Origin: Chryseobacterium indologenes
GTDB taxonomy: Bacteria > Bacteroidota > Bacteroidia > Flavobacteriales > Weeksellaceae
DNA: 64,000 nucleotides
Assembly (NCBI RefSeq): GCF_018362995.1
Contig: NZ_CP074372.1
Span: 3,720,001-3,784,000 of the forward strand
Direction: 5' to 3'
Shown here in pieces: positions 10,447 to 60,554 of the stretch; position 1 is the first letter of the stretch, and every line of letters begins with the position of its first letter. Below the pieces are notes generated by a model that had not been told where the DNA came from, ran no database searches, and saw only the letters and a program-made list of their open reading frames with translations. The translations under genes were made by a program, and so were the position numbers.

Positions 10447-10465
10447 AGGGGGATATTTTATCAAG

Positions 10466-10655: not shown

Positions 10656-10689
10656 AAAATCAGAATAGAAAACGTTCTATTCTGATTTT
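10656..10689. terminator. Strong hairpin, probable terminator of the MFS gene
   Basis: A 15-base perfect stem AAAATCAGAATAGAA (10656-10670), loop AACG, and its complement (10675-10689). It lies about 60 bases downstream of the minus-strand MFS gene and in a 300-base gap that is otherwise AT-rich and without a gene. Confidence 0.7.
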
Positions 10690-10750
10690 AAGTATTTCGA
10701 ATTCTGATTTTTTTTGTAACAGATTTTTAAATAGACTGATAAACAATAAA

Positions 10751-18713: not shown

Positions 18714-18984
18714 GTGATTGTTATCATGTTTTTATTGGCTAATATTCCTTTAAAAGGGAATTAAGGCCGTTTTAAGCCCGTTAAAATCACTTTCCTATGA
18801 TTAAAAAAATCCTGTAGATCCCCGTACAGTAAGGGTTTGAGACATTAATTAATTTTTTTTAAACATAAAAAGTGGAGTTATGTAGAAATAATTCTACTTT
18901 TATGTGTGATTAATTCTATGTTGTAATCTGTTTATTTCTATAGGTTTATGGATATATAACTGGAATTTTTAGGGCTTCATTGCG

Positions 18985-18992
18985 TACCTTTG
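18985..18992 (+). promoter_or_regulatory. -7 promoter element of the three-gene exported-protein operon
   Basis: TACCTTTG, 11 bases before the ATG at 19004. An in-frame TTG at 18980 precedes it and would place the element inside the coding region, so the ATG is chosen. Confidence 0.65.
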
Positions 18993-19003
18993 CAGTCCTT
19001 ATT

Positions 19004-20646: not shown

Positions 20647-20655
20647 AAGCGGATT

Positions 20656-28200: not shown

Positions 28201-31200
28201 GGAAGATGTTTTATATTCCTGTCCTAGCTTATTGGTAAAAACTTTTGAGACATCTCCATCAGGATCATTACGGGTAACAGTCTCATTGTACTGGCTGTCT
28301 TTGTTGTACAGGTAAGTCGTAGTGCCTGCGAGGCTGGAAGCAGAACTCTGGAGCTTACCCCATACATCATAGATATTGGTAAGGGTGTTTCCATTGGGAT
28401 CTGTTTGGGTAAGGACCTGTCCCAGGCTGTTATAAGTGAACCCAGTTTCTAGGCCGAGATTGTCCGTTTTTTTAATAAGAAATCTACCTTCAGGATTATA
28501 TTCATCTTTCTGGCTCATTGAATTTCCGTCTAAGCCTGAAGTTGTCTTTTTACCCGTGATATTTCCGAATCCGTCATAAGAATATTCTTCTGTTACAGCT
28601 TGGGTTGCATTATTTCCAGGAAAAAACTGAGTGCTTTTTAAAAGGTTGTTCTCATAGGTATAGGTCGTAAAAGTATTTTTTACATCCCCATAAGCCTCTA
28701 TTATTTCAGCCTTATTTGTTGGTCTTCCAACATAATAATTAGTTCCTGTTCCTCCAATATTATGAGTGTAATCGAACTCAGTGGTAGATACTCCATAGCC
28801 ATTGTTAGTATTGATCTCAATTTTGGATGGCAGATAATAGTTCCCATAGGTTGTTACTTTCTGAGTGAATGTTCCGGTTAAGAAATCTTTAGTTTTGACA
28901 AACTTAGGAACAATGGCAGTGACAATTTTTGATTGATATCCGGAAGGTACAGAAGTAATTACCTGACCATTCAACAGTTTATCTGCTTTATAATCTGCAG
29001 ATTCAAAGCTTAGCAGCTGGCTATTATTTTCTGAAATATCTGCTGGAAAAATATTGCTTTCATTGTTGGTTCTGATACTCCATTCTTTTACCGGCGCTCC
29101 ATCCAAATTTGGATCTATTTGTGATCCCGACCATATTTTTGTATTTTCAAACCCATCAGCATACCAGGAAGAACGGGCGATCTGCTGAAATCCAAATAAT
29201 TTTTTTCCCTGTAGGTTTCCCACTAGTCCTCTGTAGCGGAAATCCTGCTTTCTGCCTTCTTCTATAAGCTGGGACACGGCATATGCCTGATCTACCCTGG
29301 TCATAGCATAGTTAGGATAAATCTCTTTCTTTTCTTTCTTGTAGAAATCAGGTGTCGTTGTATTACCTGGAACTATTTCAAGATATTTTACTGTAGTAGT
29401 CACTCCACCCTGAGTAATAGAAGAAATTCTAGCCAATTCAGATACAGGCGTTGGCCCTTTTATTTTCTTCAGGAACTGCTTCCAGTATAAAAAGACGTTA
29501 TAATAGTTATTTCCTGATTTTATAGAATTGGTAATCGGAGTAAAGAGGGTAAGATCAAGCAGATCCTGTGTGCTGTAAGTTGGACTTTGAAATAACCAGT
29601 TGGGAGTAAAGTTCGGTGTTCCGTTAACATCTGATCCATTAGCCATCTTAGCACTTAAAACATAACCGAAATCTCTTGAGCCACCTGCATTGAACATATT
29701 GATCTGGTTATAGGAAAATACCTGAACGATATCAGATTTCCCATCTTTGTTCATGTCCGTAACCGAAAAGAAATATTGTTTGGCAAATTTGGCGTAATTC
29801 CCGGTCATTTCTTTCTGGAATTTTCTATAGGTAAAAAATTCCTGTTTTAAGAAAGGATTAAACCCTTTATCGGTTCCCATGTAGAATCTCCAGTCATCAG
29901 GTTTTCCTATAGCATAATCAGTAATAGGAATTGCGAAGTCAAGTTTCCCGTCTCCATTGTAATCGCCAAACAATACTGGAAATTCAGGATCTTTTGTCTC
30001 CAAAAGGTTTCCATTAAATTTTATTTTCTGCAGATATTGTGTAGCATTGTATTTTACAAATTCAAAAACAGTATATTGTGTACTAGATACATTAATAATT
30101 TCCACTTTTCCATCTCCATCGATATCCAGATACTTGCGCTCCTTATAATCATTTTCATTAATTCCAGCATCAAGTAGCAGACTAATTAAAGGAGTAGTTG
30201 GATTTTTAAGGTCTACAATTCCTTTTGAGTTAAATCCAACCGGGGCTCCATCATCAAGAAAAGCATCAGGTATACCATCCCCATTGAAATCCCCAACTTC
30301 AAGAATTAAATTATCGCCTAATCCATAAAAAACAGTGTTGCCCAGACTTTTATCGAATACCTTTACAAAATCATTGTTTCTAAAAATATATCCATAAATT
30401 CTACTGTCTTTATATTCAACAATTCCATTTCCATTATATACTTGCCCTTCTTCGTCTAATAGTGTACTGACTATTTTAGCGTTACCAGCAAAAGTTTTAC
30501 CTGTAGTAATAGTGGAAAAAGTCTCGTTAAAAGCTCCCAGTTTTACAGTACCGTTATTCATCAGGAAATCCAGATAAGAATCTCCATTAAAATCTGCCAC
30601 CAATTTGACATCATTAAAAGGTTCAGGTTCAGCTGTATATTCTGCATATGAAGAATTGACCATAGCTGGATAACTGAAAGTAACAGGATTAGCAGGCTCG
30701 TTATTAGCATTATATTCAGTAATTTTTCCAGCAAACTGATAATTGGTCCCATTGCCTGTATATTCTATGCTGTACCGCTTAAACTGATTATTATTGGTAA
30801 GTACTTTTACCTCTGAAAGAATCTTGTTTTGGTAAGATTTAAGTCCCTGTACATAGGATTCCTCTTTTAAGTCTCTGTCATTATAGGAAAACTGTATGGT
30901 GTTCATATGAGGCTTGTTCAAATCCTTGTTGCCACCCCAGCTTATATTGCTTATCATGGCAGTACGAGTTCCCTGAACATAGCTGTATGAGATGTAATTT
31001 CCCTGTGGATCTTTCCATTCACTTATATTATACTCAGTTGGAATTCTGGAATCTGCACCACGGCCATACCAGGCCTGAGAACCATCCTCGAAAGTAACTT
31101 CCCAATATTCCGGGCCATACCATCCAGCTGCAGTTCCTATAGATTTAAATTTGGTATTGGAATATTTTTCTGTAACATATTCAGCACCGTCTTTGCCATA

Positions 31201-31575
31201 TACACCTGATTTCAGTACAAGTCTTTTGCCATTAAAACTGTAATAATCAGAGAAGTCCATCTGAACTCCCTTTACTTCTCCTTCATTTTCAATGTTCTTA
31301 CCTGTTCTGCTGATAGTGGTTATTCCTGAAATACTCCATCCATATCCGGCAATACCGTTTTCTGTTTCACTGTTGTATACTAAACCTACCTGAGGTGAAA
31401 CTGTTTTAATCCCAGGAGGCAGGTCAAGTGGTAAAGAAAACTGAAGCTGCCCAACTCTGTTGACTTCAATATTTCCCTTAGTATCATGAAAATTCTGTGA
31501 AAAGCAGAATATTGAAATGAAAGATAATAACAACGATGAAAATATTTGTATTTTCTTATAATTATACTTTTTCAT
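25228..31575 (-). CDS. SpvB / FG-GAP / RHS-repeat polymorphic toxin
   Basis: A 2115-residue exported protein. Signal peptide 1-27 (F-C-F-S-Q). Residues about 30-300 match the SpvB / TcB-type N-terminal domain (V-S-P-Q-V-G-L-V-Y-N-S, G-Y-G-W-S-I-S-G-I-T-T-I-S-R). About 320-640 carry FG-GAP-like calcium-type repeats (D-F-N-G-D-S-Y-L-D, D-F-N-G-D-G-I-P-D, D-Y-N-G-D-G-K-L-D, D-M-N-K-D-G-K-S-D). About 990-1700 are YD/RHS repeats. The RHS core ends with G-Y-T-G-H-E-H-F near 1720 and N-D-P-N-G-E-F near 1780. Residues 1785-1930 are a Gly/Ala-rich, possibly membrane-inserting linker. The tip (about 2030-2115) contains H2085-P-G, H2091 and Y-W-K-V-S, the likely toxic domain. The repeats should form a shell enclosing the toxin. 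Secretion route unproven: no T9SS tail of its own. Confidence 0.9.
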   Translation of the reverse strand: MKKYNYKKIQIFSSLLLSFISIFCFSQNFHDTKGNIEVNRVGQLQFSLPLDLPPGIKTVSPQVGLVYNSETENGIAGYGWSISGITTISRTGKNIENEGEVKGVQMDFSDYYSFNGKRLVLKSGVYGKDGAEYVTEKYSNTKFKSIGTAAGWYGPEYWEVTFEDGSQAWYGRGADSRIPTEYNISEWKDPQGNYISYSYVQGTRTAMISNISWGGNKDLNKPHMNTIQFSYNDRDLKEESYVQGLKSYQNKILSEVKVLTNNNQFKRYSIEYTGNGTNYQFAGKITEYNANNEPANPVTFSYPAMVNSSYAEYTAEPEPFNDVKLVADFNGDSYLDFLMNNGTVKLGAFNETFSTITTGKTFAGNAKIVSTLLDEEGQVYNGNGIVEYKDSRIYGYIFRNNDFVKVFDKSLGNTVFYGLGDNLILEVGDFNGDGIPDAFLDDGAPVGFNSKGIVDLKNPTTPLISLLLDAGINENDYKERKYLDIDGDGKVEIINVSSTQYTVFEFVKYNATQYLQKIKFNGNLLETKDPEFPVLFGDYNGDGKLDFAIPITDYAIGKPDDWRFYMGTDKGFNPFLKQEFFTYRKFQKEMTGNYAKFAKQYFFSVTDMNKDGKSDIVQVFSYNQINMFNAGGSRDFGYVLSAKMANGSDVNGTPNFTPNWLFQSPTYSTQDLLDLTLFTPITNSIKSGNNYYNVFLYWKQFLKKIKGPTPVSELARISSITQGGVTTTVKYLEIVPGNTTTPDFYKKEKKEIYPNYAMTRVDQAYAVSQLIEEGRKQDFRYRGLVGNLQGKKLFGFQQIARSSWYADGFENTKIWSGSQIDPNLDGAPVKEWSIRTNNESNIFPADISENNSQLLSFESADYKADKLLNGQVITSVPSGYQSKIVTAIVPKFVKTKDFLTGTFTQKVTTYGNYYLPSKIEINTNNGYGVSTTEFDYTHNIGGTGTNYYVGRPTNKAEIIEAYGDVKNTFTTYTYENNLLKSTQFFPGNNATQAVTEEYSYDGFGNITGKKTTSGLDGNSMSQKDEYNPEGRFLIKKTDNLGLETGFTYNSLGQVLTQTDPNGNTLTNIYDVWGKLQSSASSLAGTTTYLYNKDSQYNETVTRNDPDGDVSKVFTNKLGQEYKTSSKAFAQGQYVSKDIQYDILGRKLKESEPYFEGQGATQWNIFSYDDTAFPAKVKATAFTGKQTETIISGLTTTVKETSPLDYGRTTSQTIDALGNILSSTDKGGTVQFSYNAAGQQTKAKYAEHIVTTMYDDWGNKIKVEDPSTGVYEYQYLGYMGTLSRVISPKGEKRYQYDNLGQLIIQNEKSTTGNETDKVINFSYDNKGRLTEKTGTSNGKKYTYTINYDPQGRTISSFQDTPEAYFSHKNVVYDSKGRISSYEKTIQTSVGTTGVSVENLYNVWNGELYQVKEKTSGKVLWELKEANAKGLLVKAKLGTAEIVNTYDSNGFLTNVNHSSTVKPDILKISYSFDAIKNELKNRKSGTLTTEYFYYDDNNRLVNWIDPVTGNMPSTNRNIYDVKGRILVNDQVGTIKYENADKIYQATGMTLNNEGIQNYDQDLVQTVLYNENNDPVYISGEKGSAAFQYGLAGMRQRVTYKGIFDPESDGEFTKLYSEEGSFEVVKNNINGKEKHIIYIEGNPYESNIVFLKNFDEDKGSFKFLHKDYLGSILAISDEAGKMLEQRHFDAWGNLTHLQIGNSNLAAGKADIAMLLNNSEGMLIERGYTGHEHFMEVGIIHMNGRLYDPLLRRFLNADENIQAPFNTQIYNRYGYVMNNPLIYNDPNGEFVWIAVGAVIGGYLTGVKANGSWNPVQWNWGATWGKIAMGAAVGAFTGGVGAAVGSASLAAATAYGINGGLLGGAIAGASGGAVAGAINGFATSVMFGENVIEGTVMGGLSGAAIGGALGAVSGAIGQMAQNAQAAKIGAPQGTILKGAPIAQGRSAWTLNNTPKTTTVGTTPVKTTPVIIGDVNGGFADEVIGYQLADEGATKIPIYKETPKFSYKGEYTSKTTTALRKVGTVLESVDDVMANPNLLEGKSYGYVRSILGNSKNWVNDVMRKSTRANGWVLREMNSKGTDFTDKMIQYHPGTPRHFNGQPYWKVSAGNNRPPIRIPVNP

Positions 31576-38587: not shown

Positions 38588-40081
38588 CTACTCCGGCAGC
38601 TTTTCATATTCCATACTTTTCATCTCTAAGTTTAAGTATTTATTTCCTTCATTTTTATAATGCTGCGGAGCCTCAAGACCCATATATTTCATAATCAGAG
38701 GATAGATGTAAGTTGTTTGGGTCTGCTTGGTTTCATGTCCGGTAATTCTATACGTTGCAGGAACCTTATCTCCATACCATACAAAAAACGGAACCTGGGT
38801 AGATTCTTTAGAGTCTATGTGCAATAATTTATCACCCTGTATTTTAAGTCCATGATCTGAAGCATAGATGACTACAGAATTGGTGTTTTTCAACGTTCGG
38901 AAAATATTATTAAAGACATAATCTGTGTATTTTATAGAGCTGTCATAACAGTTTAAGTTCTCGGAATTCCAATTGGGGGGAAGCCTGTTACATGGATTTG
39001 GATGGCTTCCCATGATGTGGAGAACCACAAATTTATCCTCTTTTTTCTGAATGACCTTCTCCAGTTCCGGAACAATCACTTCATCATAACCATTTACCCA
39101 TTTCTTATTTTTAGACATCGAAGCGATAGCTGTTATTCCTCTTGCGCTCGCCTGTGTGCTGAGCCAGAATGAGTTGTATCCGATTTGGTTGGCCAGATTG
39201 ATGATATTGTAGGATAGCTTGTCATAATTATATCTGAATTCATCCGGATGAATACTGGACAGCATTAAAGGGACGCTCAGGTTGGTAATTCCCGCAGGAG
39301 AAACAGCATTGTCAAAAATCATCATATTTTGAGCCTGCTGATCCGTATAAGGAGTTGTTTTTTGATGATAACCGTACAGCGACATATTTTGCTTTCTTTC
39401 AGACTCTCCGATGATCAGAATTACATTTTCTATTCCCGGTTGTATTTTTTTGATGTTGAAAACCGGAATATTCTTTTTTATTTCGTTAATGTCCCTTTGT
39501 ATATTCAAAGCGGTATTGAAATCGGATAAATGATAATAAACATTCTTGATCATCCTGCCTCCTCCTTTATTGCTTACATAGGTATGTTTAAGATGGTATC
39601 CGAATGGCAAAATAAGCCACAGTAAAGCAATAATGATAAATTTAGCATCAATCTTGACTACATTTTTTTTAAGGTAATTCACAGAGTACAGTACCATTCC
39701 CAGAAAAATGAAAAACAAAATGCCCGGAAGAATAAACATATAAGACATGCTCATTGCCTCATCAGGATTAGACTCAAGAATACTGATCGCCATTCCTACA
39801 TTAAATCCGGAATGGTAGATAAGAAAACAGGATACTGATATCAGAAAGTTAATGCTTAATAATAAACAGAGAATAACAGCAATTACAGACGTATATCTAT
39901 TCTTAAAAAGAAGAGCATTGAATACAAGAAACGAACAAAACATAATTCCATACTCAAAAATATTCCGGATACTGTCCAATTTTTCGGGGCCAAATAAATT
40001 ATCAAAGATATAAGGGAATGAAACCAAAAAACCTGTTAGGTATATTATAATGAGAAGAATGGGAACTATTTTTTTGAGCAT
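38588..40081 (-). CDS. Phosphoethanolamine transferase-like sulfatase-fold protein
   Basis: 497 residues, inner membrane. Five or so N-terminal helices (to about 165), then a periplasmic alkaline-phosphatase/sulfatase-fold domain. Motifs: I-L-I-I-G-E-S-E-R-K (E226, S227 at the nucleophile position), M-S-L-Y-G-Y-H-Q-K-T-T-P, and the metal ligands in Y-A-S-D-H-G-L and H-I-D-S-K-E-S-T-Q-V-P. Such enzymes transfer phosphoethanolamine from phosphatidylethanolamine to lipid A or core sugars and reduce sensitivity to cationic peptides. The nucleophile, usually threonine in EptA, is serine here, as in the CptA branch, pointing to core or other glycan as the acceptor. Faces the plus-strand gene at 37957-38562 tail to tail. 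Confidence 0.85.
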   Translation of the reverse strand: MLKKIVPILLIIIYLTGFLVSFPYIFDNLFGPEKLDSIRNIFEYGIMFCSFLVFNALLFKNRYTSVIAVILCLLLSINFLISVSCFLIYHSGFNVGMAISILESNPDEAMSMSYMFILPGILFFIFLGMVLYSVNYLKKNVVKIDAKFIIIALLWLILPFGYHLKHTYVSNKGGGRMIKNVYYHLSDFNTALNIQRDINEIKKNIPVFNIKKIQPGIENVILIIGESERKQNMSLYGYHQKTTPYTDQQAQNMMIFDNAVSPAGITNLSVPLMLSSIHPDEFRYNYDKLSYNIINLANQIGYNSFWLSTQASARGITAIASMSKNKKWVNGYDEVIVPELEKVIQKKEDKFVVLHIMGSHPNPCNRLPPNWNSENLNCYDSSIKYTDYVFNNIFRTLKNTNSVVIYASDHGLKIQGDKLLHIDSKESTQVPFFVWYGDKVPATYRITGHETKQTQTTYIYPLIMKYMGLEAPQHYKNEGNKYLNLEMKSMEYEKLPE

Positions 40082-40614: not shown

Positions 40615-41169
40615 CTATACTTTACGGTTGATATAATCCATTGTAGCATTAGGGGTAGGGATGATTTTTGCCGGGTTTCCTATGACAACAGAATTGGATG
40701 GAACATCAAAATTGACATAAGAATTAGGAACTATCAATACATTATTTCCGATAGTGACAGCGCCTACAATAACGGCATTGGTGCCTATCCAGACTTCATC
40801 ACCAATAATTGGAAAACCTTCATTCTTTCCACGGTTTTGCTGGCCGATAGTGACTCCTTGTGCGATATTGCAGTTCTTGCCAATGACTGTTTTCGGATTG
40901 ATGACAAGACTTCCCCAATGGCCCAGATAAAAACCTTCTCCAATCTGAGTTTCAGGATAAATCTGAAATCCGTATTTGATCTGATAATGCCTTAATACAA
41001 TTCTCCAGAACGTATTCAAAAGAGGGCTTTTCTGATACTTCTGAGCCTTTCTCAGAATGTAAACAAAATGAAGATTAGGATTAATACACTTTTTCCAGAT
41101 CTGAAATGTTGAAAGCCACTTTCCGCTTTCCCGGTAAAAGTCTTTTTGAATGATAGAATAATCAGCCAT
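40615..41169 (-). CDS. Left-handed beta-helix acyltransferase (CysE/LacA type)
   Basis: 184 residues from ATG 41169 (TTG two codons earlier is rejected). An N-terminal helical part is followed by hexapeptide repeats (I-G-E-G-F-Y-L-G-H, V-I-G-K-N-C-N-I-A-Q-G-V-T-I-G, V-T-I-G-N-N-V-L-I). G-H-W-G and G-Q-Q-N are placed as in serine acetyltransferase relatives with the catalytic histidine. Gene context makes it an O- or N-acyltransferase for a sugar of the surface glycan, not cysteine synthesis. Last gene of the locus; it lies 11 bases after a glycosyltransferase. The trimeric fold and donor are inferred from the family. Confidence 0.85.
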   Translation of the reverse strand: MADYSIIQKDFYRESGKWLSTFQIWKKCINPNLHFVYILRKAQKYQKSPLLNTFWRIVLRHYQIKYGFQIYPETQIGEGFYLGHWGSLVINPKTVIGKNCNIAQGVTIGQQNRGKNEGFPIIGDEVWIGTNAVIVGAVTIGNNVLIVPNSYVNFDVPSNSVVIGNPAKIIPTPNATMDYINRKV

Positions 41170-41180
41170 TGTCAATGTTT

Positions 41181-42329
41181 TTATACTTCATCAATTATTT
41201 TCTGAAGATGTTCTACAGATTTTTCCAGTACAAACGGCAGTTCTGTTGCTGAGATCTGTTTTTTGTATTCTTCAGTGATATTTTTATCGGTAAGAAACTT
41301 TTTCATTCCTTCGTATATTCCTTCTTCGGAATTTGCAGTAATATTGCCCAGTTTTCCGTCCTGCAGAAGGTCTCTGATACCGGAAATATCCGTTGCAGAA
41401 ATAGGTTTGTTGAGAATAAGAGCTTCGGCAATGATTGTAGGGAAGCCCTCATGTCTGGATGACATAATATAGAAATCCGCCTTTTTCATATACGGGTACG
41501 GATTACTGCTGAAACCCAGCATTTTTGCCGTATCCTGAAGCCCCAGTGCATTGAGCTGATCCTGGGTTTTATCAAAATCATAACCGTCACCAATGATCAG
41601 AAGCTGATGTTTCAACCCTTCATCGATCAGTTTTTTATGAACATTCAACAATCGGTCATACCCTTTCTGAGGATACACGGTTCCTACCGTTACAAAAGTA
41701 GGAAGATCACTGTTGAAAGGATAATCATTGATTTCAACATCTGCCTTTCTTAAGGTATCATTCCTATCAATTGGATTAAAAATCTTAATTACAGAAGCCT
41801 TTTCCGCCTCGTTTTTAGCCAGATTATGCATTCCTTCCTGCAGCTTGTTGGAAATCACAAGAATTCTGTCAAATCTGAAAAATTGTCTGATGACTTCCGG
41901 AGTGTATTCTTTCAGATTGAAGATATCATTCTGTACCCAGATAATCTTTTTGGAATCCTTTTGAGGGCTGGACAGTATTTCCTGATGCATGGCATGAATG
42001 GCTGCAATCTCTACATCATATTTTTTATTTTTTAAAACAAATTTATAAAGAAGAGAAGGGAACCAAAGAAACATTTTCTGATAAAGAACCCTGTAAGCTT
42101 TCACAGGAATATCCTGCGGTCTGTTGGTCGTTATCATTTCTCCTTTTGTCAGATAGTATAAAGTAACCCATGACGGAACTTCTTTAATATATAATCCCGA
42201 ATAGAGGTTGACCAGCAGGTCTACTTCATATTTATCGGGAGGAAGATTTTTCAGAAAGTTGATTAATACTTTTTCTGCACCGCCATGACGTAATGAACCT
42301 ATACGAATGAGGAGTTTTTTCTTTTTCAA
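41181..42329 (-). CDS. Glycosyltransferase family 4 (GT-B), TTG start
   Basis: 382 residues. G-S-L-R-H-G-G-A-E-K-V-L at the N-terminus is the glycine loop of the GT4 acceptor domain, and H-E-G-F-P-T-I-I-A-E-A-L at about 290-305 is the E-x7-E sugar-nucleotide site. Cytosolic face of the inner membrane, adding one sugar to the growing glycan. The only start that preserves the N-terminal glycine loop is TTG at 42329, because an in-frame TAA lies seven codons upstream and no ATG occurs between. It is a paralogue of the gene at 44977-46131. Confidence 0.9.
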   Translation of the reverse strand: MKKKKLLIRIGSLRHGGAEKVLINFLKNLPPDKYEVDLLVNLYSGLYIKEVPSWVTLYYLTKGEMITTNRPQDIPVKAYRVLYQKMFLWFPSLLYKFVLKNKKYDVEIAAIHAMHQEILSSPQKDSKKIIWVQNDIFNLKEYTPEVIRQFFRFDRILVISNKLQEGMHNLAKNEAEKASVIKIFNPIDRNDTLRKADVEINDYPFNSDLPTFVTVGTVYPQKGYDRLLNVHKKLIDEGLKHQLLIIGDGYDFDKTQDQLNALGLQDTAKMLGFSSNPYPYMKKADFYIMSSRHEGFPTIIAEALILNKPISATDISGIRDLLQDGKLGNITANSEEGIYEGMKKFLTDKNITEEYKKQISATELPFVLEKSVEHLQKIIDEV

Positions 42330-42361: not shown

Positions 42362-42931
42362 TTATTTAATTTTTCTTGCTTTTTTATACTTATGAGGAAG
42401 ATTTTCTTTGATATAGGCATCCAGTTTTTTCCTGTCTTTTTCCAACTCACGGGGATATTCCGGGTTGTTTTTAAGAACAATATCACCATAGTCTTCAATG
42501 GTACACAAGAATTGGGCCGGATTTCCAATAAACACCGTATTATCTGGCATAGACTGTGAAAGCACAGAATTAGCTCCCAGAATACAGTTGTTACCAATCT
42601 GTACATCCTGCATGATTACAGCATTGAGACCAATTGTACAGTTATTTCCTATTTTTATTCTTCCAAGAATTCTGGCATCTTCGTATCCGGGAAGTCTTCT
42701 CAACAGAGTAGTGGTTCCGCCGTGATTTACAAATCTTACGTCTCCGGCAATATTCACATTGTCACCAATCTCAATAAGATAAGGTTCAGTTCCAAAATAC
42801 ACTTTATCGGGCATATTGAAGTTTTTTCCTACCTTCATACCTCTATATTTAGCCACTTCAAGACTGCCTCTATTCAAAAAAGATTGATAGAGAGCGTCTA
42901 TTTTTAATAGGATTCTGAATATAAAAATCAT
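42362..42931 (-). CDS. Left-handed beta-helix acyltransferase
   Basis: 189 residues from ATG 42931. Hexapeptide repeats (I-E-I-G-D-N-V-N-I, I-K-I-G-N-N-C-T-I-G-L-N-A-V-I, V-Q-I-G-N-N-C-I-L-G-A-N-S-V-L) form the beta-helix, and F-V-N-H-G-G holds the likely catalytic histidine. The C-terminus is a long basic helix. Probably acetylates or otherwise acylates a sugar. It is the first gene of a three-gene minus-strand unit (with 41181 and 40615) that starts back-to-back with the plus-strand KAS III cassette, 53 bases away. Confidence 0.85.
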   Translation of the reverse strand: MIFIFRILLKIDALYQSFLNRGSLEVAKYRGMKVGKNFNMPDKVYFGTEPYLIEIGDNVNIAGDVRFVNHGGTTTLLRRLPGYEDARILGRIKIGNNCTIGLNAVIMQDVQIGNNCILGANSVLSQSMPDNTVFIGNPAQFLCTIEDYGDIVLKNNPEYPRELEKDRKKLDAYIKENLPHKYKKARKIK

Positions 42932-42954
42932 CACAAGTGTAAAGTTGTTTTCGT

Positions 42955-42962
42955 TACTTTTG
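42955..42962 (+). promoter_or_regulatory. -7 promoter element of the KAS III - ACP - SDR cassette
   Basis: TACTTTTG, 22 bases upstream of the first ATG at 42985, on the strand opposite to most of the polysaccharide locus. Confidence 0.6.
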
Positions 42963-42984
42963 CAAAGAAAGAGAATTTATTAAT

Positions 42985-43956
42985 ATGATGAAAATTTCAA
43001 AAATAGAATATTATCTGCCTCAGCAGGTGTTAACTAACGAGGGGCTTGAAAAATTGTTCCCCGAATGGAGTTCAGAACGCATCAAGGAGAAAGTAGGTAT
43101 TTCTCAACGTCATATTTCTTCAGACAACGAAACGGTGCTGGATATGGCTGTACAATCTTCCGAAAAAATTTTCGAAAACTATGACAGGAACAAAATAGAT
43201 TTTATTTTGTTCTGTACCCAGAGTCCGGAGTATTTTCTGCCTACAACGGCCTGTATTTTGCAGGACAGATTGAGGCTTAGGAAAAATATCGGAGCTATAG
43301 ATTTTAATCTTGGCTGCTCAGGGTTTGTGTATGGATTAGCGTTTGCGAAAGGTTTGATTGCTGCTGGAGTTGCAAAGAGTATTCTTTTGGTGACTTCAGA
43401 AACGTACACCAAACATATTCATCCTGATGATAAAGGAAACCGAAGCATATTCGGGGATGCTTCAGCCTCAGCAATTATTGAAAAAGCAGAGGGGAATGAC
43501 TATCAATTCTGTCTGGGTACAGACGGGAGCGGTGCTGAAAACCTTATCGTGAAGAAAGGAGCTTTTAAAAAAGACTTTGAACTGAATCCTGAGCATGAAT
43601 TCAGCCCGGAAAATATTTATATGAATGGTCCTGAAATTTTTAATTTTACAATTGAAAATATCCCGGGATTGGTAAAAGAAACCCTTGAAGTGAACGGAAT
43701 GACCATGGATGATATTGATCATTTTGTTTTTCACCAGGCTAATTCTTTTATGCTGAATTATTTAAGAAAGAAAACAAAAATACCGGCTGAAAAGTTCTAT
43801 ATTGATATGGAAAATACCGGAAACACTGTTTCTGCAACTATTCCTATTGCCCTTAAAAATATGATGGATAAAGGAATGCTGAAGGAAGGAGATAAAGTTT
43901 TAATGGCAGGCTTTGGAGTAGGTTATTCATGGGGAGCCACCATTATGGAAATTTAA
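42985..43956 (+). CDS. 3-oxoacyl-ACP synthase III family enzyme (FabH-like)
   Basis: 323 residues, cytosolic. Condenses an acyl-CoA or acyl-ACP with malonyl-ACP. The catalytic triad is complete: C111 (N-L-G-C-S-G-F-V-Y-G), H250 (V-F-H-Q-A-N) and N280 (N-T-G-N-T-V-S-A-T-I-P). It is the first of three genes in the order KAS III, acyl carrier protein, reductase, inside a polysaccharide locus and on the strand opposite to its neighbours. Unlike housekeeping fabH it is not next to fatty-acid synthesis genes. Its own carrier and reductase suggest a short hydroxyacyl group is built here for glycan acylation. The substrate chain length cannot be read. Confidence 0.92.
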   Translation: MMKISKIEYYLPQQVLTNEGLEKLFPEWSSERIKEKVGISQRHISSDNETVLDMAVQSSEKIFENYDRNKIDFILFCTQSPEYFLPTTACILQDRLRLRKNIGAIDFNLGCSGFVYGLAFAKGLIAAGVAKSILLVTSETYTKHIHPDDKGNRSIFGDASASAIIEKAEGNDYQFCLGTDGSGAENLIVKKGAFKKDFELNPEHEFSPENIYMNGPEIFNFTIENIPGLVKETLEVNGMTMDDIDHFVFHQANSFMLNYLRKKTKIPAEKFYIDMENTGNTVSATIPIALKNMMDKGMLKEGDKVLMAGFGVGYSWGATIMEI

Positions 43957-43983
43957 GATAACAAACATTTAAAATTATAAAAT

Positions 43984-44217
43984 ATGAAGACATCCGTTTT
44001 TTTAGAAAAACTACAAGAAGAATTGGAGGAAGATGAAACATTGACCACTGAAACGAATTTAAAATCTTTGGAAAGCTATGACTCTATCAGTTTACTTTCT
44101 GTTATTGCATTTGTAGACGAAAATTTCAGCAAAAAAATTGATACCAAGCATTTTAAAGATATCGAAACCGTTTCTGATCTGATGAATGTTATAGGAAAAG
44201 AAAATTTTGAAGATTAA
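43984..44217 (+). CDS. Dedicated acyl carrier protein
   Basis: 77 residues, acidic, four-helix ACP fold. The phosphopantetheine attachment serine is S34 in Y-D-S-I-S-L-L-S-V, where the usual D-S-L is D-S-I. It sits 27 bases after the KAS III gene, and its stop overlaps the ATG of the reductase by one base, so the three are one operon. A dedicated carrier keeps the acyl intermediate apart from the general fatty-acid pool. Housekeeping acpP is expected elsewhere in the genome. Confidence 0.9.
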   Translation: MKTSVFLEKLQEELEEDETLTTETNLKSLESYDSISLLSVIAFVDENFSKKIDTKHFKDIETVSDLMNVIGKENFED

Positions 44218-44975
44218 TGGATGCTTTCTCATTAAAAAATAAAATTGTTCTCATTACAGGCGCTTCTTCCGGAATAGGGAGAAGCTGTTCTGTAGAATGC
44301 AGCAAAAGCGGCGCAGATTTGATTCTTGTGGGAAGAAACCAGGAAGAACTGATGAAAACCGTTGCTCTGCTGAATCCTGAAACCAAATTTGAGATCATTG
44401 CCGAAGATATTACCCAATCTGAAAACCTTGAAGCTGTCATTGCAGATAAAGTTTCAGTTTTAGGCAAGATTTCAGGATTCATACACTGTGCCGGTATCGA
44501 GAAAACATTACCGTTAAAAAAGCACAATCCTCAGTTGTACCAGGATATATTTGCAGTGAATGTCATTGCCGGACTTGAAATTGCCAAAATCCTTTCTCTA
44601 AAAAAGTATAAAGAAGAGACGTCCAGTTTTGTATTTATTTCTTCTGTTGCAGGAATGGTAGGGGAGGCTGGAAAAGCGGCTTATTCTGCCAGTAAAGGGG
44701 CTGTCATTTCAGGTGCCCGTTCATTGGCAATGGAACTTTCCAGAAGTAATATCCGTGTCAACAGCATAAGCCCTGCCATGGTGAATACCCCGATTCTGGA
44801 AAAAATGTTTGAAGATATTGGTGAAGAAGCTTCATCAGAAATCATAAAAAAGCATCCGCTGGGAATAGGTGACCCTAAAGATGTAGCGAATGCTTGTATT
44901 TTTCTATTGTCCGACGCCTCAAGATGGGTTACAGGAACCAATCTTGTCATTGATGGAGGATATTCTGCACAGTAA
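44217..44975 (+). CDS. Short-chain dehydrogenase/reductase (FabG-like)
   Basis: 252 residues, Rossmann fold. Cofactor motif G-A-S-S-G-I-G at 15-21, with R40 (V-G-R-N) suggesting NADPH; active-site S142/S143 and Y156-S-A-S-K160. The usual N-N-A-G motif reads H-C-A-G. The likely job is reduction of the 3-oxoacyl-ACP made by the KAS III gene to 3-hydroxyacyl-ACP. An alternative is action on a nucleotide sugar, but the ACP partner makes the acyl route more likely. One base separates its stop from that of the convergent glycosyltransferase at 44977, with no terminator between. Confidence 0.9.
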   Translation: MDAFSLKNKIVLITGASSGIGRSCSVECSKSGADLILVGRNQEELMKTVALLNPETKFEIIAEDITQSENLEAVIADKVSVLGKISGFIHCAGIEKTLPLKKHNPQLYQDIFAVNVIAGLEIAKILSLKKYKEETSSFVFISSVAGMVGEAGKAAYSASKGAVISGARSLAMELSRSNIRVNSISPAMVNTPILEKMFEDIGEEASSEIIKKHPLGIGDPKDVANACIFLLSDASRWVTGTNLVIDGGYSAQ

Positions 44976-44976
44976 C

Positions 44977-46131
44977 TTATTTTTTGTACAGCGTTTCTAT
45001 AATATTTTCTACGCTGTCAAATATTTTCTTATTGTCGAACTGACTTTCAATATTTTTAAGATTTTCTCTGATATGGAGAACAAGGCTGGGATCGGTAAAG
45101 AATGTCTTCATTGCCGAATACATTTCATCAACCTCATAACTGATAAGGTATCCCGTTTCCCGGTCTTTGATCATCAACCCTACATCACCTACATTCGTTG
45201 CAATAATAGGCTTCTGAAGGATTAATGCTTCAGCAATTACCAGAGGCCATGCTTCAGATTCGGAAGGAAGAATGAAGTAATCTGCTTTCTTGATGTACGG
45301 ATAAGGGTTCATCTGATTTCCGGCCAGAATAAATGTATTTTCAACATTGTTTTTTGCGACCTGAGCTTTAAGGTTCTTCATTTCATCACCATCTCCAATG
45401 ACAATGATGCTGTGATGAAATCCTTCGTTGATAAGCCTTGTATGGGCTTCAATAAGTTTATGATATCCTTTTCTTGAATGAAGTCTCCCGATAGACGCAA
45501 AAACAGGTCCTTCAGGGAAGTTGTCAATCTTTTCTTCAGCCTTTCGCTTTATTTCTTCGATAGGAATAGGATTGATAATAACACTTTCAGCGGGATAATT
45601 GAGATCTGGATAATACTGATGCATCATATCCTTTATTTTGTGAGAGCAGTACACCATATGATCAAACTGCGGGAAGCTCTTTAAAATATCAGGCACCAAA
45701 GGCTGAAATTTTGGAACATTGATTTCAGAATGAAACCATCCGATTTTTTTTGAATTTTTATGGGTAGAACTCAGGATAGCATCATAATCCCTGTAATCCA
45801 TCCCTATTTCTATATCAAAGGTATCATTGATAAGCCTGTCAGCAATAGCTGGGTTGTTTTTCAGTTTACGAAGCTTTAACCTTCTCTTGGCAAGCTGAAG
45901 TTTTTGAAGCAGAGAATTGTCTGAAAAATCCTCTTTTCCATCAGTAAGGTATATTTTTCTGATATGTTTCGGAAGCTCATCACGCAGCTTACCCTGGTTA
46001 AGAGTAAGGCATACCGTCATTTCAAATTTGTCAGGATTCAGATTGTTGAGAAGTCCCAACAGTACTTTTTCTACGCCTCCCATTTCCATGGAGCGGTGTC
46101 TGAACAAAATTTTTATTTTTTTTTCTATCAT
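44977..46131 (-). CDS. Glycosyltransferase family 4 (GT-B)
   Basis: 384 residues. M-E-M-G-G-V-E-K-V-L at the N-terminus and S-E-A-W-P-L-V-I-A-E-A-L as the E-x7-E site. It is a paralogue of 41181-42329, sharing K-I-x-L, N-P-D-K-F-E/K-Y-E and the P-Y-P-Y-I/M-K-K-A-D motif. It is coupled to the GT2 gene upstream by a one-base stop/start overlap. Attaches a sugar on the cytosolic side of the membrane; donor unknown. Confidence 0.9.
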   Translation of the reverse strand: MIEKKIKILFRHRSMEMGGVEKVLLGLLNNLNPDKFEMTVCLTLNQGKLRDELPKHIRKIYLTDGKEDFSDNSLLQKLQLAKRRLKLRKLKNNPAIADRLINDTFDIEIGMDYRDYDAILSSTHKNSKKIGWFHSEINVPKFQPLVPDILKSFPQFDHMVYCSHKIKDMMHQYYPDLNYPAESVIINPIPIEEIKRKAEEKIDNFPEGPVFASIGRLHSRKGYHKLIEAHTRLINEGFHHSIIVIGDGDEMKNLKAQVAKNNVENTFILAGNQMNPYPYIKKADYFILPSESEAWPLVIAEALILQKPIIATNVGDVGLMIKDRETGYLISYEVDEMYSAMKTFFTDPSLVLHIRENLKNIESQFDNKKIFDSVENIIETLYKK

Positions 46132-56388: not shown

Positions 56389-57489
56389 TTAAAATCTATT
56401 TACAATTTCTATTACTTTTTCAACTTCTTCCTCTGTCATTACAGGGGAGATTGGTAAACTTAATACTTCTTCATGGATTTTTTCACTGATGGGGAAAGAC
56501 TGATTATTCCATTCTTTATAGGCATCCTGCTTATGAGGCGGGATCGGATAATGTATCAATGTTTGAATGCCACTTTCAGTTAAATACTTTTGAAGCTCAT
56601 CACGGTTTTCTGTTCTGATGACAAATAAATGCCAAACATGCTCATTTACATCTGCTGGGTTTTCCGGAAGAGTTATTTTGGGATTTGATATTTCTGCAAT
56701 ATACCTTTTCGCAATATTTTTTCTTACCGTATTTTCCTCATCAATATATTTTAACTTAACGTCCAGAACTGCAGCCTGAATTTCATCCAATCTTGAATTT
56801 AATCCCTGATAAATATTGACATATTTCTGATTAGATCCATAGTTGGCCAATGCTCTGATAACTTTTGCTAAATCATCATCATTGGTTGTAATAGCTCCTG
56901 CATCCCCTATAGCTCCCAGATTCTTTCCAGGATAAAAGCTAAAACCTGCTGCATCTCCTAAATTACCTGTTTTCTGTCCATTCCATATTGCACCGATAGC
57001 CTGAGCATTATCTTCTATTAATTTTAACTGATGCTTTTCTACTAGATCTTTAAGTTGATTTGAGAAAACAGTTCGTCCGTATAGATGAACAATCAGGATT
57101 CCTTTTGTTTTTGAAGTGATTTTTTCTTCAATTTTTGTGATGTCAATATTATAATTATTAATATCAGGCTCTACAAGAACAGGAACCAGGCCATTGTCTG
57201 AAATAGCAAGAATGGAGGCAATGTAAGTATTGGACGGTACAAGGATTTCATCCCCACGATCCATAATTCCCATTTCAATATATCCACGCAGTATAAGGCG
57301 TAAAGCATCTAACCCATTGGCTACACCAATAGCATGTTTAGCTCCTATGTATTGAGAAAGATTACTTTCAAAAGATGAAAGCTCCTGCCCCATAAGAAAC
57401 CATCCGGAACGGAATACCTGAGAAAGTTTTGTTTCTATTTCTTCCTGATGCTTTAAATTGATTTTTTGTAAGTCTAAAAATTTAATCAT
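56389..57489 (-). CDS. DegT/DnrJ/EryC1 sugar aminotransferase (FdtB/QdtB-like)
   Basis: 366 residues, PLP enzyme. The Schiff-base lysine is K189 in [19 protein letters not shown] and H-L-Y-G-R and E-D-N-A-Q-A-I-G are the cofactor-binding motifs. [12 protein letters not shown] lies in the usual place. Converts dTDP-3-keto-6-deoxyhexose to dTDP-3-amino-3,6-dideoxyhexose, as expected from the linked FdtA/QdtA isomerase and the acyltransferase. Fuc3N versus Qui3N depends on the isomerase and cannot be read with certainty here. Confidence 0.9.
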
Positions 57490-57493: not shown

Positions 57494-59368
57494 TTAATTA
57501 TCTTTATTTGTGTTGATATTCAGTGTTTTGTATATTCTTTGTGATAACACATTTTTATATTGTTCTGTACCAAACAGTGTTAAATGATTGGTATCATATA
57601 TATACGGATAGTTTTCTGGAGATACTTTGTCAATTCTTACATTGAGCAAGTCGATATATTGATCACCCAGATAGTTTTTTAAAAAAGCATTGAATTTTTC
57701 AGTCTCTTTGATTTTCTTCTCCTCTGCATACATATTTGCATTATACTTTTTCTTGATGTAATAGTATGTCGGGAAATCTATCACGTAGAAATCAGTCATG
57801 CCTATGTAAAGAGTAGGCACTTTATATTTTGAAAAATATTGTCCGGTTATTTTGAGATTATTTTTTATCTCTTTTTCAGGATATCCCGAATAATTAGCAT
57901 TAATAATGATAAGGTCTATATTTTTATAGTATTTGGGAAAATATTCCGTGAATATATAATTGAAATATTGCACAGGATTAGGATAAATACCTTTGGAATT
58001 TTCCATAGGGTAGGTAGCGTCTGCAGTGATCTGGATAAGATTAATATCTTTTTTATCTGCAAAGATATTATTAACTGTTTCTGAAAACATTCCTGCATGA
58101 CTATCTCCTAAAAGAACGACATTTTTTTTATCAGAAACAGGAATATCTAAATTCTGTATAAGTGTTTTATAGTCCTTTTTATGGGTAAGGTGTTTTGTGT
58201 CAATTTTATATTGATCTTCAGCTTTTTTACTATACTTATAGTTTGAGGTAGTATTGATCAGATCTTTATTTTCATCCGTATAATTCTCAGCATCTACTTT
58301 TGTAATGGAGAATGTAAAAATGAATATAATCAGACTCACTGTGAGAACTGATTTAGCCTTATTAGAATAATTTCTTTTTTCAATCCCCTCGTAGGAAAGT
58401 ATAGCAAGAATAAATGAAACACATATTGCCAGAACACGATATTTCAAACTGATATCCACTTCAAAAAACAGAATCAATACATACAATGGCCAGTGATACA
58501 GATATAGGGAATAAGATATATTTCCAAGGTAGGTAACTGTTTTATTTTTGTACGCTATGAATTCATAATTCAGGCTGATAAGCAATGCTGTGAAGAATAC
58601 GGGAATGATGGTATACAACGATGGCCATGAAGATGCATGAAAGAGAAAAATAAAAGATATTATTGCTGAAAGAGAAGTCAAAGCCAAGACTAGCTTTACT
58701 TTTTTCTGAATATGCTGCATTTTATCTTCCAACAGAAATGCAAGTCCACCCAACATCATCTCCCAGGCTCTGGGATAAAAAATGTAAAAAGAGAAATCAG
58801 AGTCATAATTGCTATGAATGAGCATAGCACCAAATGAAATAAAGGCTAATGCTAAAAAGACTGCAGTAAAGCTATTCTTTTTTGTGGTATATAATTTCTT
58901 TAAGAGAAGTAATATGAGCGGATAAATTAAATAAAACTGCCATTCTACGGAAAGTGACCATGAATGTAATAGAAAGTTGTACTGAGAAGAGGCGTCGAAG
59001 TATCCGTTATTTAAGTAATAATAAATATTAGAAAAAAACAGAACGCTGGAAAAAGCACTTCTGAAAAAGTTGACAATCTGCGGCTGAAGAAAAAAGAATA
59101 TGACCAATGAAAAAGTAACAACTAATCCTAAAAGTGCAGGAATAATCCTGATTATTCTTCTTCTGTAAAAATCCCAGAGATTAAAGTTTCCCTTATGAAA
59201 AGAAGACAAAATGATTTTGGTCATTAAAAACCCTGAAATAACAAAGAATATATCGACACCGATAAATCCGGACTTAAACCATTGAAATTTATAATGATAG
59301 AAAAGAACTGCGAGTACAGAAAATGCCCGCAGAAAAGAAATATCGTATCTGAAACTATTGTTTTTCAA
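57494..59368 (-). CDS. OafA-like acyltransferase with C-terminal SGNH domain, TTG start
   Basis: 624 residues: ten or so helices of acyltransferase family 3 (about 1-350; [15 protein letters not shown] with catalytic-type histidine, [11 protein letters not shown]), then a periplasmic SGNH hydrolase-like domain (about 400-620; [10 protein letters not shown], and D-T-N-H-L-T-L-F-G near the end, supplying the D-x-x-H pair). Moves an acyl group across the membrane and onto a glycan sugar. TTG at 59368 is the only possible start that keeps the first helix: an in-frame TAA directly precedes it. Inserted between the FdtC-like and FdtB-like genes. Confidence 0.9.
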
Positions 59369-59377: not shown

Positions 59378-60157
59378 TTAATCGTTTTCGTATCCGTTAT
59401 CTTTTTTCCATTCATCAAACCCTTGTTTTTCCCAAGGTAGGCCTCTTGAAAAATTATAAGGCCACGGGTAATGGGATTTGCCTGTCTCTCTCGATTTCAT
59501 TTCTCTGACATCCTTGATTTTTTTTCCAGGATTTCCAAGAATTAAAGAATAATCTTCATAATTACCTCCCACCAGTGATTGGGCTCCTACAAGACAATGT
59601 TTTCCGATTGTTGTTCCCGGAAGTAAAACAGTGCCTACAGCTATCTGAGAAAAATCTCCGATGGTAGCACCTATACACACATCAGAAGGAGGAGTAGGAT
59701 CATTAGTAAGTACTACATAAGGATAAATAAAAACAAAGTTTTCTATGGTAGACTTTTGACCAATATGAACATTGCTGTGAAGCCAGCAGTTATTACCAAA
59801 CGTGACATGTCCCTGTATATCTGTTACCGTACCCAATCTACAGTTATTCCCGAAAACAGAGTTTTCTCTTATTGTAACTCTGTGTCCGGTAGAAAAATTA
59901 TTACCAAAACGGGAACCTGCATATAAAATCGTATGACTTCTTATTAATGCATTTTCACCAATTATAGTTTCAGGATTTACATAATCATCTTTAAAATAAT
60001 AATCATTAAGCGGCTCTCCAATGACACAGTCATTCGCAATAATAGAATTATCACCAATAATAACGTTGTCATAAATTACGGTATTGTCACCTATTTTTAC
60101 GTTTTTGCCTATTCTGGCTTTATCGCTTATGGATACATTCTTATTATTAAATTTCAT
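59378..60157 (-). CDS. Nucleotide-sugar N-acyltransferase (FdtC/QdtC-like), beta-helix
   Basis: 259 residues from ATG 60157, overlapping the end of the isomerase gene by 11 bases. Long left-handed beta-helix: R-I-G-K-N-V-K-I-G, V-I-I-G-D-N-S-I, R-F-G-N-N-F-S-T-G-H-R, V-H-I-G-Q-K-S-T, T-I-G-K-H-C-L-V-G-A. Coupled to the isomerase and near the aminotransferase, so it should acylate the 3-amino group of dTDP-Fuc3N or dTDP-Qui3N. Acyl donor is usually acetyl-CoA, but with the KAS III cassette present a hydroxyacyl donor is possible. Confidence 0.86.
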   Translation of the reverse strand: MKFNNKNVSISDKARIGKNVKIGDNTVIYDNVIIGDNSIIANDCVIGEPLNDYYFKDDYVNPETIIGENALIRSHTILYAGSRFGNNFSTGHRVTIRENSVFGNNCRLGTVTDIQGHVTFGNNCWLHSNVHIGQKSTIENFVFIYPYVVLTNDPTPPSDVCIGATIGDFSQIAVGTVLLPGTTIGKHCLVGAQSLVGGNYEDYSLILGNPGKKIKDVREMKSRETGKSHYPWPYNFSRGLPWEKQGFDEWKKDNGYEND

Positions 60158-60554
60158 TTGGGTAATTTTTAAAATCCTGATAATTTCTGAAATAGTCATC
60201 CTCGTCGTATAGTTCGGATGCCAGACATAATAATACGGCGCTGTGGCTGAACTTTATATCTCTCCATACTAATTTAGGAATATATAAACCTGTATTGGGA
60301 CTGTCTAATACGAAAACTTCTTTTTTCCCATCTTTATCTTCTGTATTGAACGTAATTGTTCCTGCTACGGCAACAATTAGTTGTTGAAGGTTTTTATGGG
60401 CGTGTCCTCCACGGCTTACATCCTGTGGGGTATAATAAGTCCAATATACTCTTTTAATATCAAAAGGTACATCTTTCTGTGCTTCAGAAATAGTGATATA
60501 TCCAAGTTCGGGAGAACCTATTTTGTTTAAATTTATTATGTGAGGGCCTGTCAT
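60147..60554 (-). CDS. dTDP-4-keto-6-deoxyglucose 3,4-ketoisomerase (FdtA/QdtA-like)
   Basis: 135 residues, single cupin (WxcM-like/FdtA family). The catalytic histidines are H51 and H53 in S-R-G-G-H-A-H-K, followed by Q-Q-L-I-V-A-V-A-G; Y-I-P-K-L-V-W closes the cupin. It turns dTDP-4-keto-6-deoxyglucose (product of RmlB, partly present at 63901) into the 3-keto isomer, which the aminotransferase uses. Fuc- or quinovose-type product is set by a few active-site residues that I cannot assign with confidence. Confidence 0.92.
   Translation of the reverse strand: MTGPHIINLNKIGSPELGYITISEAQKDVPFDIKRVYWTYYTPQDVSRGGHAHKNLQQLIVAVAGTITFNTEDKDGKKEVFVLDSPNTGLYIPKLVWRDIKFSHSAVLLCLASELYDEDDYFRNYQDFKNYPNEI

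What the first reader, a model, noticed from the sequence alone, without database searches (positions are those of the whole stretch)
42955..44975. Self-contained KAS III - ACP - reductase cassette inside an O-antigen locus
Three plus-strand genes with complete active sites (C111/H250/N280; pantetheine serine S34; Y156/K160) form a minimal acyl-building line with its own promoter, surrounded by glycosyltransferases and seven acyltransferases. Seen: gene order, tight spacing, catalytic residues. Known: FabH-type enzymes condense an acyl starter with malonyl-ACP, and FabG-type reductases give 3-hydroxyacyl-ACP. Inference: the cassette makes a short 3-hydroxyacyl group for N- or O-acylation of the glycan, possibly by the FdtC-like enzyme, or for a chain end recognised by Wzt.
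Basis: partly seen in the sequence, partly recalled or inferred. Interest (0 to 1): 0.7.

Follow-up and report, generated by a model that had tools for sequence, protein, structure and literature searches.

The report
Swappable acyl-supply cassette for LPS sugar
In Chryseobacterium, three enzymes that build a short fatty-acid-like group sit beside a sugar-decorating enzyme in the surface-glycan genes, and some related species carry unrelated acyl-building kits in the same slot together with their own version of the decorating enzyme.

Summary
The genes are real and intact: KAS III 42985-43956, ACP 43984-44217, SDR 44217-44975, with the stated catalytic residues; the window is Chryseobacterium. 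The acyl-building chemistry is well supported; the proposed user (FdtC-like enzyme) is not. It is QdtC-like, 14 kb away; of 47 trio-bearing genomes, 8 lack FdtA and 10 have a second KAS within 1.2 kb of FdtA. The likely user is the adjacent, divergent hexapeptide acyltransferase 42362-42934 (LbH42). In 98 Chryseobacterium genomes, the slot between two glycosyltransferase genes holds no acyl kit (43), KAS-ACP with or without SDR, or remnants (48), ACP/GNAT/DltA-like enzyme (4), or ACP-SDR-AMP ligase-LbH42 (3). LbH42 clades follow: one found only with the trio (27 genomes), one only with the second kit, one only with the third. In another genus LbH42 plus trio sits inverted as one block between the same flanks. 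Precedents: P. syringae viosamine island, F. psychrophilum O-antigen R-group genes. Verdict: new variant of a known kind, making a short 3-hydroxyacyl group (probably 3-hydroxybutyryl) on a private ACP for an LPS sugar. Acyl group and acceptor are untested; 12 of 20 KAS genomes with the other LbH42 clade keep a constrained KAS without SDR, which the model explains only partly.

The parts
42362..42934 (-). LbH42: left-handed beta-helix (hexapeptide) acyltransferase, WbbJ-like, 190 aa; proposed user of the trio's acyl-ACP
42935..42984 (.). 50-nt divergent intergenic region
   Evidence: sequence
42955..42962 (+). TACTTTTG, candidate -7 promoter box of the trio
   Evidence: kept in 25 of 26 clade-A genomes, absent at this place in 20 of 20 clade-B genomes
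42985..43956 (+). KAS III (FabH-like condensing enzyme), C111/H250/N280
43984..44217 (+). acyl carrier protein, phosphopantetheine site S34
44217..44975 (+). SDR reductase, FabG-like, S143/Y156/K160
41181..42329 (-). GT41: glycosyltransferase group 1, flank of the slot
   Evidence: Pfam Glycos_transf_1; synteny
44977..46131 (-). GT45: glycosyltransferase group 1, flank of the slot; a relative (40-100% identity, E <= 1e-60) in 98 of 98 genus genomes
40615..41175 (-). CysE-like hexapeptide acetyltransferase of the same block
59378..60199 (-). QdtC/FdtC-like N-acyltransferase: separate acylation step, not part of the cassette
   Evidence: PDB 3fs8 QdtC E 4.7e-68
60147..60554 (-). FdtA-like protein (3,4-ketoisomerase family): separate pathway
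   Evidence: Pfam FdtA E 3.2e-42
56389..57489 (-). DegT/DnrJ/EryC1 aminotransferase (FdtB/QdtB-like by context): separate pathway

Best explanation
The unit is a four-gene divergon, LbH42 <- | -> KAS III-ACP-SDR. KAS III condenses a short acyl-CoA (most likely acetyl-CoA) with malonyl carried on the private ACP (malonyl and phosphopantetheine come from housekeeping enzymes). The SDR reduces the 3-oxoacyl-ACP to 3-hydroxyacyl-ACP, probably 3-hydroxybutyryl. LbH42 transfers that group to a sugar of an LPS glycan built by the GT45/GT41 block. Shown: gene content, catalytic residues, synteny, restriction of LbH42 clades to module types, and LbH42 plus trio as one inverted block in another genus. 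Inferred: operon structure, substrates, chain length, acceptor sugar, O- or N-linkage. The same slot holds other ACP-based acyl kits in a few relatives, each with its own LbH42 clade, so it looks like a plug-in place for different acyl groups on one acceptor.
For: Slot survey, 98 Chryseobacterium genomes: 33 full trio, 15 trio without SDR or with remnants, 4 ACP|GNAT-DltA-like adenylating enzyme, 3 ACP-SDR-AMP ligase-LbH42, 43 with no such kit. All 55 kit-bearing genomes have an LbH42; 33 of the 43 others do. In the third kit LbH42 follows the kit genes in line on the same strand in 3 of 3, which ties LbH42 to an ACP kit directly. LbH42 tree, 88 proteins: clade A 27 rows, all trio-bearing (26 full); T2 clade 4 of 4; T3 clade 3 of 3; clade B 53 rows (32 no kit, 14 reduced trio, 7 full trio). 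In G423 (another genus) an LbH42 that groups with clade A (76% median identity to A, 50% to B) and KAS-ACP-SDR-KAS stand inverted as one block between the same GT45 and GT41. The trio is full in 25 of 26 KAS genomes with clade A and 7 of 20 with clade B. Precedents with the same chemistry in glycan loci.
Against: Kinship: the allele/SDR link rests on about 3 allele switches and 5 SDR changes on the KAS tree; the independent-pairs test (2-3 pairs) has no power. In 12 of the 20 KAS genomes with clade B, KAS and ACP stay without SDR and remain constrained (KAS dN/dS 0.076; 0.042 in clade A with SDR), so clade B or another enzyme may use the product, and the private SDR is dispensable there. The LbH fold is shared by O- and N-acyltransferases and acetyl-CoA enzymes and gives no donor or acceptor. 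FdtA is commoner in trio genomes. No LPS structure of a Chryseobacterium with this cassette turned up in the searches made.
Confidence: 0.65

Rival explanations
1. The trio feeds the QdtC/FdtC-like enzyme, giving a 3-hydroxyacylated 3-amino-3,6-dideoxyhexose.
For: FdtA is commoner in trio genomes, 39 of 47 versus 28 of 51. Other Chryseobacterium do have ACP-KAS genes between FdtA and the aminotransferase (L057, L061).
Against: 8 trio genomes have no FdtA match and 10 have a second KAS within 1.2 kb of FdtA; the window enzyme is closest to QdtC, an N-acetyltransferase by its PDB title, and is 14 kb away in the variable part.
Confidence: 0.13
2. The product goes to another acyltransferase of the block (hexapeptide enzyme at 46970, membrane acyltransferase at 47680, or the CysE-like enzyme), and LbH42 clades merely hitch-hike with the slot by recombination.
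For: KAS stays constrained in clade-B genomes; LbH42 clade labels change 7 times on the GT45 tree and 13 on the GT41 tree, so the region recombines or the trees are unsure.
Against: Relatives of 46970, 47680 and the CysE-like gene also occur in genomes with no kit; the third kit is in line with LbH42, and the G423 block holds LbH42 but not the others.
Confidence: 0.16
3. The trio serves lipid or pigment synthesis and its position in the glycan locus is incidental.
For: KAS III, ACP and SDR are also enzymes of fatty-acid and pigment pathways (general knowledge).
Against: The genome has four further KAS III-like matches, one FabH-like by eye; outside the genus related KAS genes lie beside sugar-acyltransferase-like genes (14 of 14 stretches); in the genus the trio stands in the same glycosyltransferase slot in all 47 genomes that have its KAS.
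Confidence: 0.04

Closest known systems
Pseudomonas syringae viosamine island vioS-acp-vioR-vioB (PMC3927599; abstract and passages seen)
   Same: KAS III, ACP, 3-oxoacyl-ACP reductase and an acyltransferase in a glycan locus; product N-(3-hydroxybutyryl)-2-O-methylviosamine; flagellins of vioR and vioM deletions were examined by mass spectrometry.
   Different: There the acyltransferase is VioB (hexapeptide type: recalled), the acceptor a dTDP-linked 4-amino sugar with its aminotransferase in the island, and the target flagellin. Here the acyltransferase is WbbJ-like, no aminotransferase is adjacent, and the surroundings are an LPS block shared by the genus.
Flavobacterium psychrophilum O-antigen R-group genes wfpC-wfpG (PMC6519341; passages seen)
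   Same: Same phylum; O-antigen-specific ACP, two KAS, a reductase and an acyltransferase predicted to make 3,5-dihydroxyhexanoyl; strains differ in R-group genes and acyltransferase homologues, with antigenic effect.
   Different: wfpG is a PglD homologue predicted to act on UDP-Qui2NAc4N; two KAS. L063 and most stretches resemble wfp more than the window does. Here one KAS, LbH42, and non-homologous supply kits in one slot across species.
QdtC (Thermoanaerobacterium thermosaccharolyticum, PDB 3fs8)
   Same: Closest solved relative of the window's own protein 59378-60199.
   Different: Belongs to the separate RmlA-FdtA pathway of the locus, not to the cassette.
DltA/DltC D-alanylation system
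   Same: The second kit in the slot has a DltA-like adenylating enzyme and a small carrier protein.
   Different: Below the DltA equivalog cut-off (252.7 of 559.85 bits); a GNAT and LbH42 stand beside it, and no DltB-like gene was noticed in the stretch read (by eye).

Membership tests
beta-ketoacyl-ACP synthase III | Cys-His-Asn triad | tested here: met
   C111/H250/N280
beta-ketoacyl-ACP synthase III | NCBIfam KAS III subfamily model NF006829 above cut-off | tested here: met
   276.5 bits, cut-off 249
housekeeping FabH | TIGR00747 fabH above cut-off | tested here: not met
   249.6 bits, cut-off 292.1; another FabH-like gene (by eye) is in the genome
acyl carrier protein | PP-binding domain with attachment serine | tested here: met
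   PF00550 21.2 bits, cut-off 20.8; S34 in 48 of 48. The four NCBIfam ACP models listed stay below their cut-offs.
FabG 3-oxoacyl-ACP reductase | TIGR01830 above cut-off | tested here: not met
   151.6 bits, cut-off 297.75: a classical SDR, works like FabG by inference only
FabG 3-oxoacyl-ACP reductase | classical SDR catalytic Ser-Tyr-Lys | tested here: met
   S143/Y156/K160
viosamine-island / wfp type N-acyl module | KAS III + ACP + reductase adjacent in a glycan locus | tested here: met
viosamine-island / wfp type N-acyl module | PglD/VioB-type (TIGR03570) acyltransferase as partner | tested here: not met
   LbH42 56.1 bits, cut-off 160.8
viosamine-island / wfp type N-acyl module | amino-sugar aminotransferase adjacent to the module | tested here: not met
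   the locus's DegT gene is 11 kb away (56389-57489)
viosamine-island / wfp type N-acyl module | 3-hydroxyacyl group on the glycan | not testable with these tools
   needs mass spectrometry or NMR
WbbJ-type sugar O-acetyltransferase | NF007240 above cut-off | tested here: not met
   LbH42 65.1 bits, cut-off 243; the fold is shared with several acetyltransferase families

The most novel reading that the evidence does not exclude
The place between GT45 and GT41 is an evolutionary plug-in slot: non-homologous acyl-activation kits (condensation-reduction on ACP; amino-acid adenylation with N-acylation on ACP; acid ligation with reduction on ACP) are exchanged across species together with a matching allele of one acyltransferase, so that one conserved LPS sugar carries a hydroxyacyl, an N-acylated aminoacyl, another acid or simple acetyl, species by species.
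Probability: 0.45. Interest if true: 0.68.

Novelty: new variant of a known kind. Interest (0 to 1): 0.52.

Why it matters
Bacterial glycans carry many odd N- and O-acyl groups whose biosynthesis is rarely assigned. A fixed slot with interchangeable acyl kits and matched acyltransferase alleles would let acyl decorations be predicted from genomes, would give a natural series for studying how hexapeptide acyltransferases choose acyl-ACP donors, and would show a way of diversifying LPS other than exchanging sugars or polymerases.

Tried and rejected
Literature: eight searches showed no paper whose title or abstract start describes this Chryseobacterium cassette or a Chryseobacterium LPS with 3-hydroxyacyl groups. 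Limits: the lists were capped (for example 15 of 156 papers, 12 of 57, 20 of 47), the library holds open-licence papers only, and only PMC3927599, PMC6519341 and PMC3210612 were opened (passages).

Acyl-chain prediction from the KAS pocket: the residue matching E. coli FabH Phe87 (gate role recalled) is Leu85, the same in 46 of 46 genus KAS; too weak to name the starter. The alignment of the genome's other KAS III genes used wrong (longest) ORFs for two of three and was discarded; one search lists the right ORFs.

Promoter scan: 11 sigma-70-like hits versus 8.9 expected, uninformative. tRNA and Rfam scans of the window were empty.

LbH42 structure: the fold matches serine, sugar and drug acetyltransferases alike, and also AntD, an N-acyltransferase by its PDB title; it does not settle donor or acceptor. 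Columns separating clades A and B were listed (among them G72, next to invariant H71, and N122) but not interpreted.

Rows dropped or labelled by hand: the LbH42 tree holds 88 of 98 genomes (10 have no LbH42). G062 (held assembly 75% complete, KAS frame with stops) was labelled full trio by hand because ACP and SDR are open. The KAS tree omits G062 and G064 (no KAS) and includes a truncated KAS of G037. dN/dS omits G037 and G064 and pairs with dS outside 0.1-1.5. Flank trees hold 81 of 88. 'No kit' means no match to the KAS, ACP, adenylating or ligase queries; an unknown kit elsewhere in the locus would be missed. G025 has two rows (the kit row and a second GT45 locus) and is counted once.

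Full report
WHAT IS THERE. The three genes exist as described, with complete active sites. KAS III passes the NCBIfam KAS III subfamily cut-off but not that of FabH; the reductase is a classical SDR that does not pass the FabG cut-off; the ACP passes PP-binding narrowly. The window lies in a 5.0-Mb genome whose KAS is 79-99% identical to that of 31 named Chryseobacterium loci. The genome has four further KAS III-like matches (best 36% identity), so this is not its only KAS III.

WHERE IT SITS. In the 31 named loci the trio lies in one block, CysE-like - GT41 - LbH42 | KAS-ACP-SDR | GT45 - GT46, while the far part of the locus varies. Exceptions: no SDR in L012, L030 and L034; in L032 a sulfatase-family gene like window 38588-40081 stands between SDR and GT45 (family); in L036 KAS and GT45 are broken up; LbH42 is only 49-54% identical in L030, L033 and L034. 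So the trio is in the shared part of the locus, not in the variable O-antigen part.

SURVEY OF THE SLOT. I searched 98 Chryseobacterium genomes with FdtA, KAS, GT45 and LbH42 and fetched the slot of the others beside the window's. A GT45 relative occurs in 98 of 98 (40-100% identity). KAS close to the window's (79% identity or more) occurs in 47: 45 full length plus G037 (truncated) and G062 (frame with stops). The slot between GT45 and LbH42/GT41 holds: full trio 33; KAS-ACP without SDR, or remnants, 15 (one of them, G064, ACP alone); a small ACP facing a GNAT and a DltA/amino-acid-adenylation-like enzyme, 4 (G039, G056, G072, G087); ACP-SDR-AMP-binding ligase-LbH42 in line, 3 (G012, G025, G032; its ACP has no Pfam match and is named by its DSIG motif and place); no such kit 43, of which 33 have LbH42 and 10 do not. 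Of those ten, two have GT41 next to GT45, and three of the other eight were read gene by gene: a GT2-like gene (by eye) stands there. All 55 kit-bearing genomes have LbH42.

THE PARTNER. The tree of 88 LbH42 proteins has four deep groups: A, 27 rows, all with the trio (26 full, 1 without SDR; support 100/99); T2, 4 rows, all and only the second kit (100/97); T3, 3 rows, all and only the third kit (100/98); and B, 53 rows with 32 no-kit, 14 reduced and 7 full trios (92/97, not starred). One further no-kit row, G052, is a long branch with no sure place. Median identity within A is 90%, between groups 46-53%. In the third kit LbH42 is in line with the ACP kit. I read these facts as showing that LbH42, not the remote QdtC-like enzyme, is the trio's partner.

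TESTS THAT WEAKEN THE STORY. Full trios are 25 of 26 with clade A and 7 of 20 with clade B (Fisher p 8.6e-6), but the KAS tree needs only 3 allele switches and 5 SDR changes, and the independent-pairs test has 2-3 pairs and no power. KAS in 12 SDR-less clade-B genomes is still under purifying selection (median dN/dS 0.076; 0.042 in clade A with SDR, 0.058 in clade B with SDR), so it is not simply decaying: either general FabG does the reduction, or a 3-oxoacyl group is used, or clade B or another enzyme also takes the product. The -7-like box is intact in 25 of 26 clade-A genomes and in 0 of 20 clade-B genomes at that place, although in some clade-B genomes a TAnnTTTG remains further upstream (by eye); close kinship inflates this contrast.

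THE FDT SUGAR. The window's own FdtA, QdtC-like and aminotransferase genes form a separate acylation route. In 12 of the 98 genomes a divergent KAS (50-52% identity) lies within 1.2 kb of FdtA; in the two read gene by gene the order is RmlA-FdtA-GNAT-ACP-KAS-aminotransferase, one with two ACPs (L057 = G017, L061 = G012; the GNAT by a weak PseH match). Ten of these 12 also have the trio, and 8 further trio genomes have no FdtA match. FdtA is nevertheless commoner among trio genomes (39 of 47 versus 28 of 51, p 0.004 uncorrected), a result against my reading.

OUTSIDE THE GENUS. In 395 genomes drawn from the phylum, 19 have a KAS match at E 1e-85 or better, in 10 of 170 genera; 14 of the 19 are outside Chryseobacterium. 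I fetched wider stretches of these 14 and of one Chryseobacterium. Beside G423, 13 remain (by BLAST and by eye): in 9 KAS lies with an ACP (two of them by eye), an SDR, a PglD-like, other hexapeptide or GNAT-like acyltransferase and a DegT-type aminotransferase; G376 has all but an aminotransferase in the stretch; G434 is a 4-kb contig with acyltransferase, KAS and aminotransferase; G389 has KAS with FdtA-like genes, acyltransferase and aminotransferase but no ACP or SDR found; G472 has no ACP found. These resemble the F. psychrophilum wfp set more than the window's unit.

MECHANISM. Best-supported sequence: KAS III + malonyl-ACP + short acyl-CoA to 3-oxoacyl-ACP; SDR to 3-hydroxyacyl-ACP; LbH42 to the sugar. 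The first two steps follow from the established chemistry of the families; the third is inferred from genomic linkage. Chain length (3-hydroxybutyryl) rests on analogy with modified viosamine and on the absence of a dehydratase or elongating enzyme among the trio genes. Whether the bond is ester or amide is open.

KNOWN OR NEW. KAS-ACP-reductase-acyltransferase sets for glycans are known from P. syringae (deletions and mass spectrometry, passages) and predicted in F. psychrophilum, where strains also differ in R-group genes with antigenic effect (passages). Hydroxybutyryl and N-acetyl-alanyl groups on glycans of marine bacteria are listed in a review (passages). What I did not find described (searches and their limits under Tried and rejected) is a fixed slot with three unrelated ACP-based kits and matched acyltransferase alleles. 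Hence: new variant of a known kind.

Noticed in passing
L113-L116 (G039, G056, G072, G087): Second kit in the same slot: ACP facing a GNAT and a DltA/amino-acid-adenylation-like enzyme, with its own LbH42 clade; suggests an (N-acylated) aminoacyl decoration.
   Followed up: partly
L050, L117, L131 (G032, G012, G025): Third kit: ACP-like, FabG-like SDR, AMP-binding ligase and LbH42 in line on one strand.
   Followed up: partly
L057 6127-10526, L061 7711-12419: RmlA-FdtA-GNAT-ACP-KAS-aminotransferase order: looks like a dedicated acyl supply for the 3-amino-3,6-dideoxyhexose; L061 has two ACP genes in a row.
   Followed up: partly
L063 (G081 C1:4055000-4073000), also L168-L170: Two KAS, ACP, a Rieske-like protein (by eye) and SDR with a PglD-like acyltransferase and an aminotransferase: resembles the F. 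psychrophilum wfp genes plus an oxygenase-like step.
   Followed up: no
L164 (G423) 7696-11409: LbH42 plus KAS-ACP-SDR-second KAS inverted as a block between the same flanking glycosyltransferase genes as in Chryseobacterium.
   Followed up: yes
upstream of KAS in clade-B genomes: The TAnnTTTG box 22 nt before KAS is changed in all 20 genomes with LbH42 clade B that were listed.
   Followed up: partly
L174 6834-7229 (G389): A MaoC-like small protein (by eye) between FdtA-like genes and KAS, where no ACP or SDR was found; not searched.
   Followed up: no
window 57494-59368: Acyl_transf_3 membrane acyltransferase fused to an SGNH domain.
   Followed up: no
window 18980-21393: Three adjacent proteins with similar 'VGI.T..P...LDVNG' starts, like surface fibre heads (by eye); not searched.
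   Followed up: no
window 25228-31575: A 2115-aa protein with a signal-like start (by eye); not searched.
   Followed up: no
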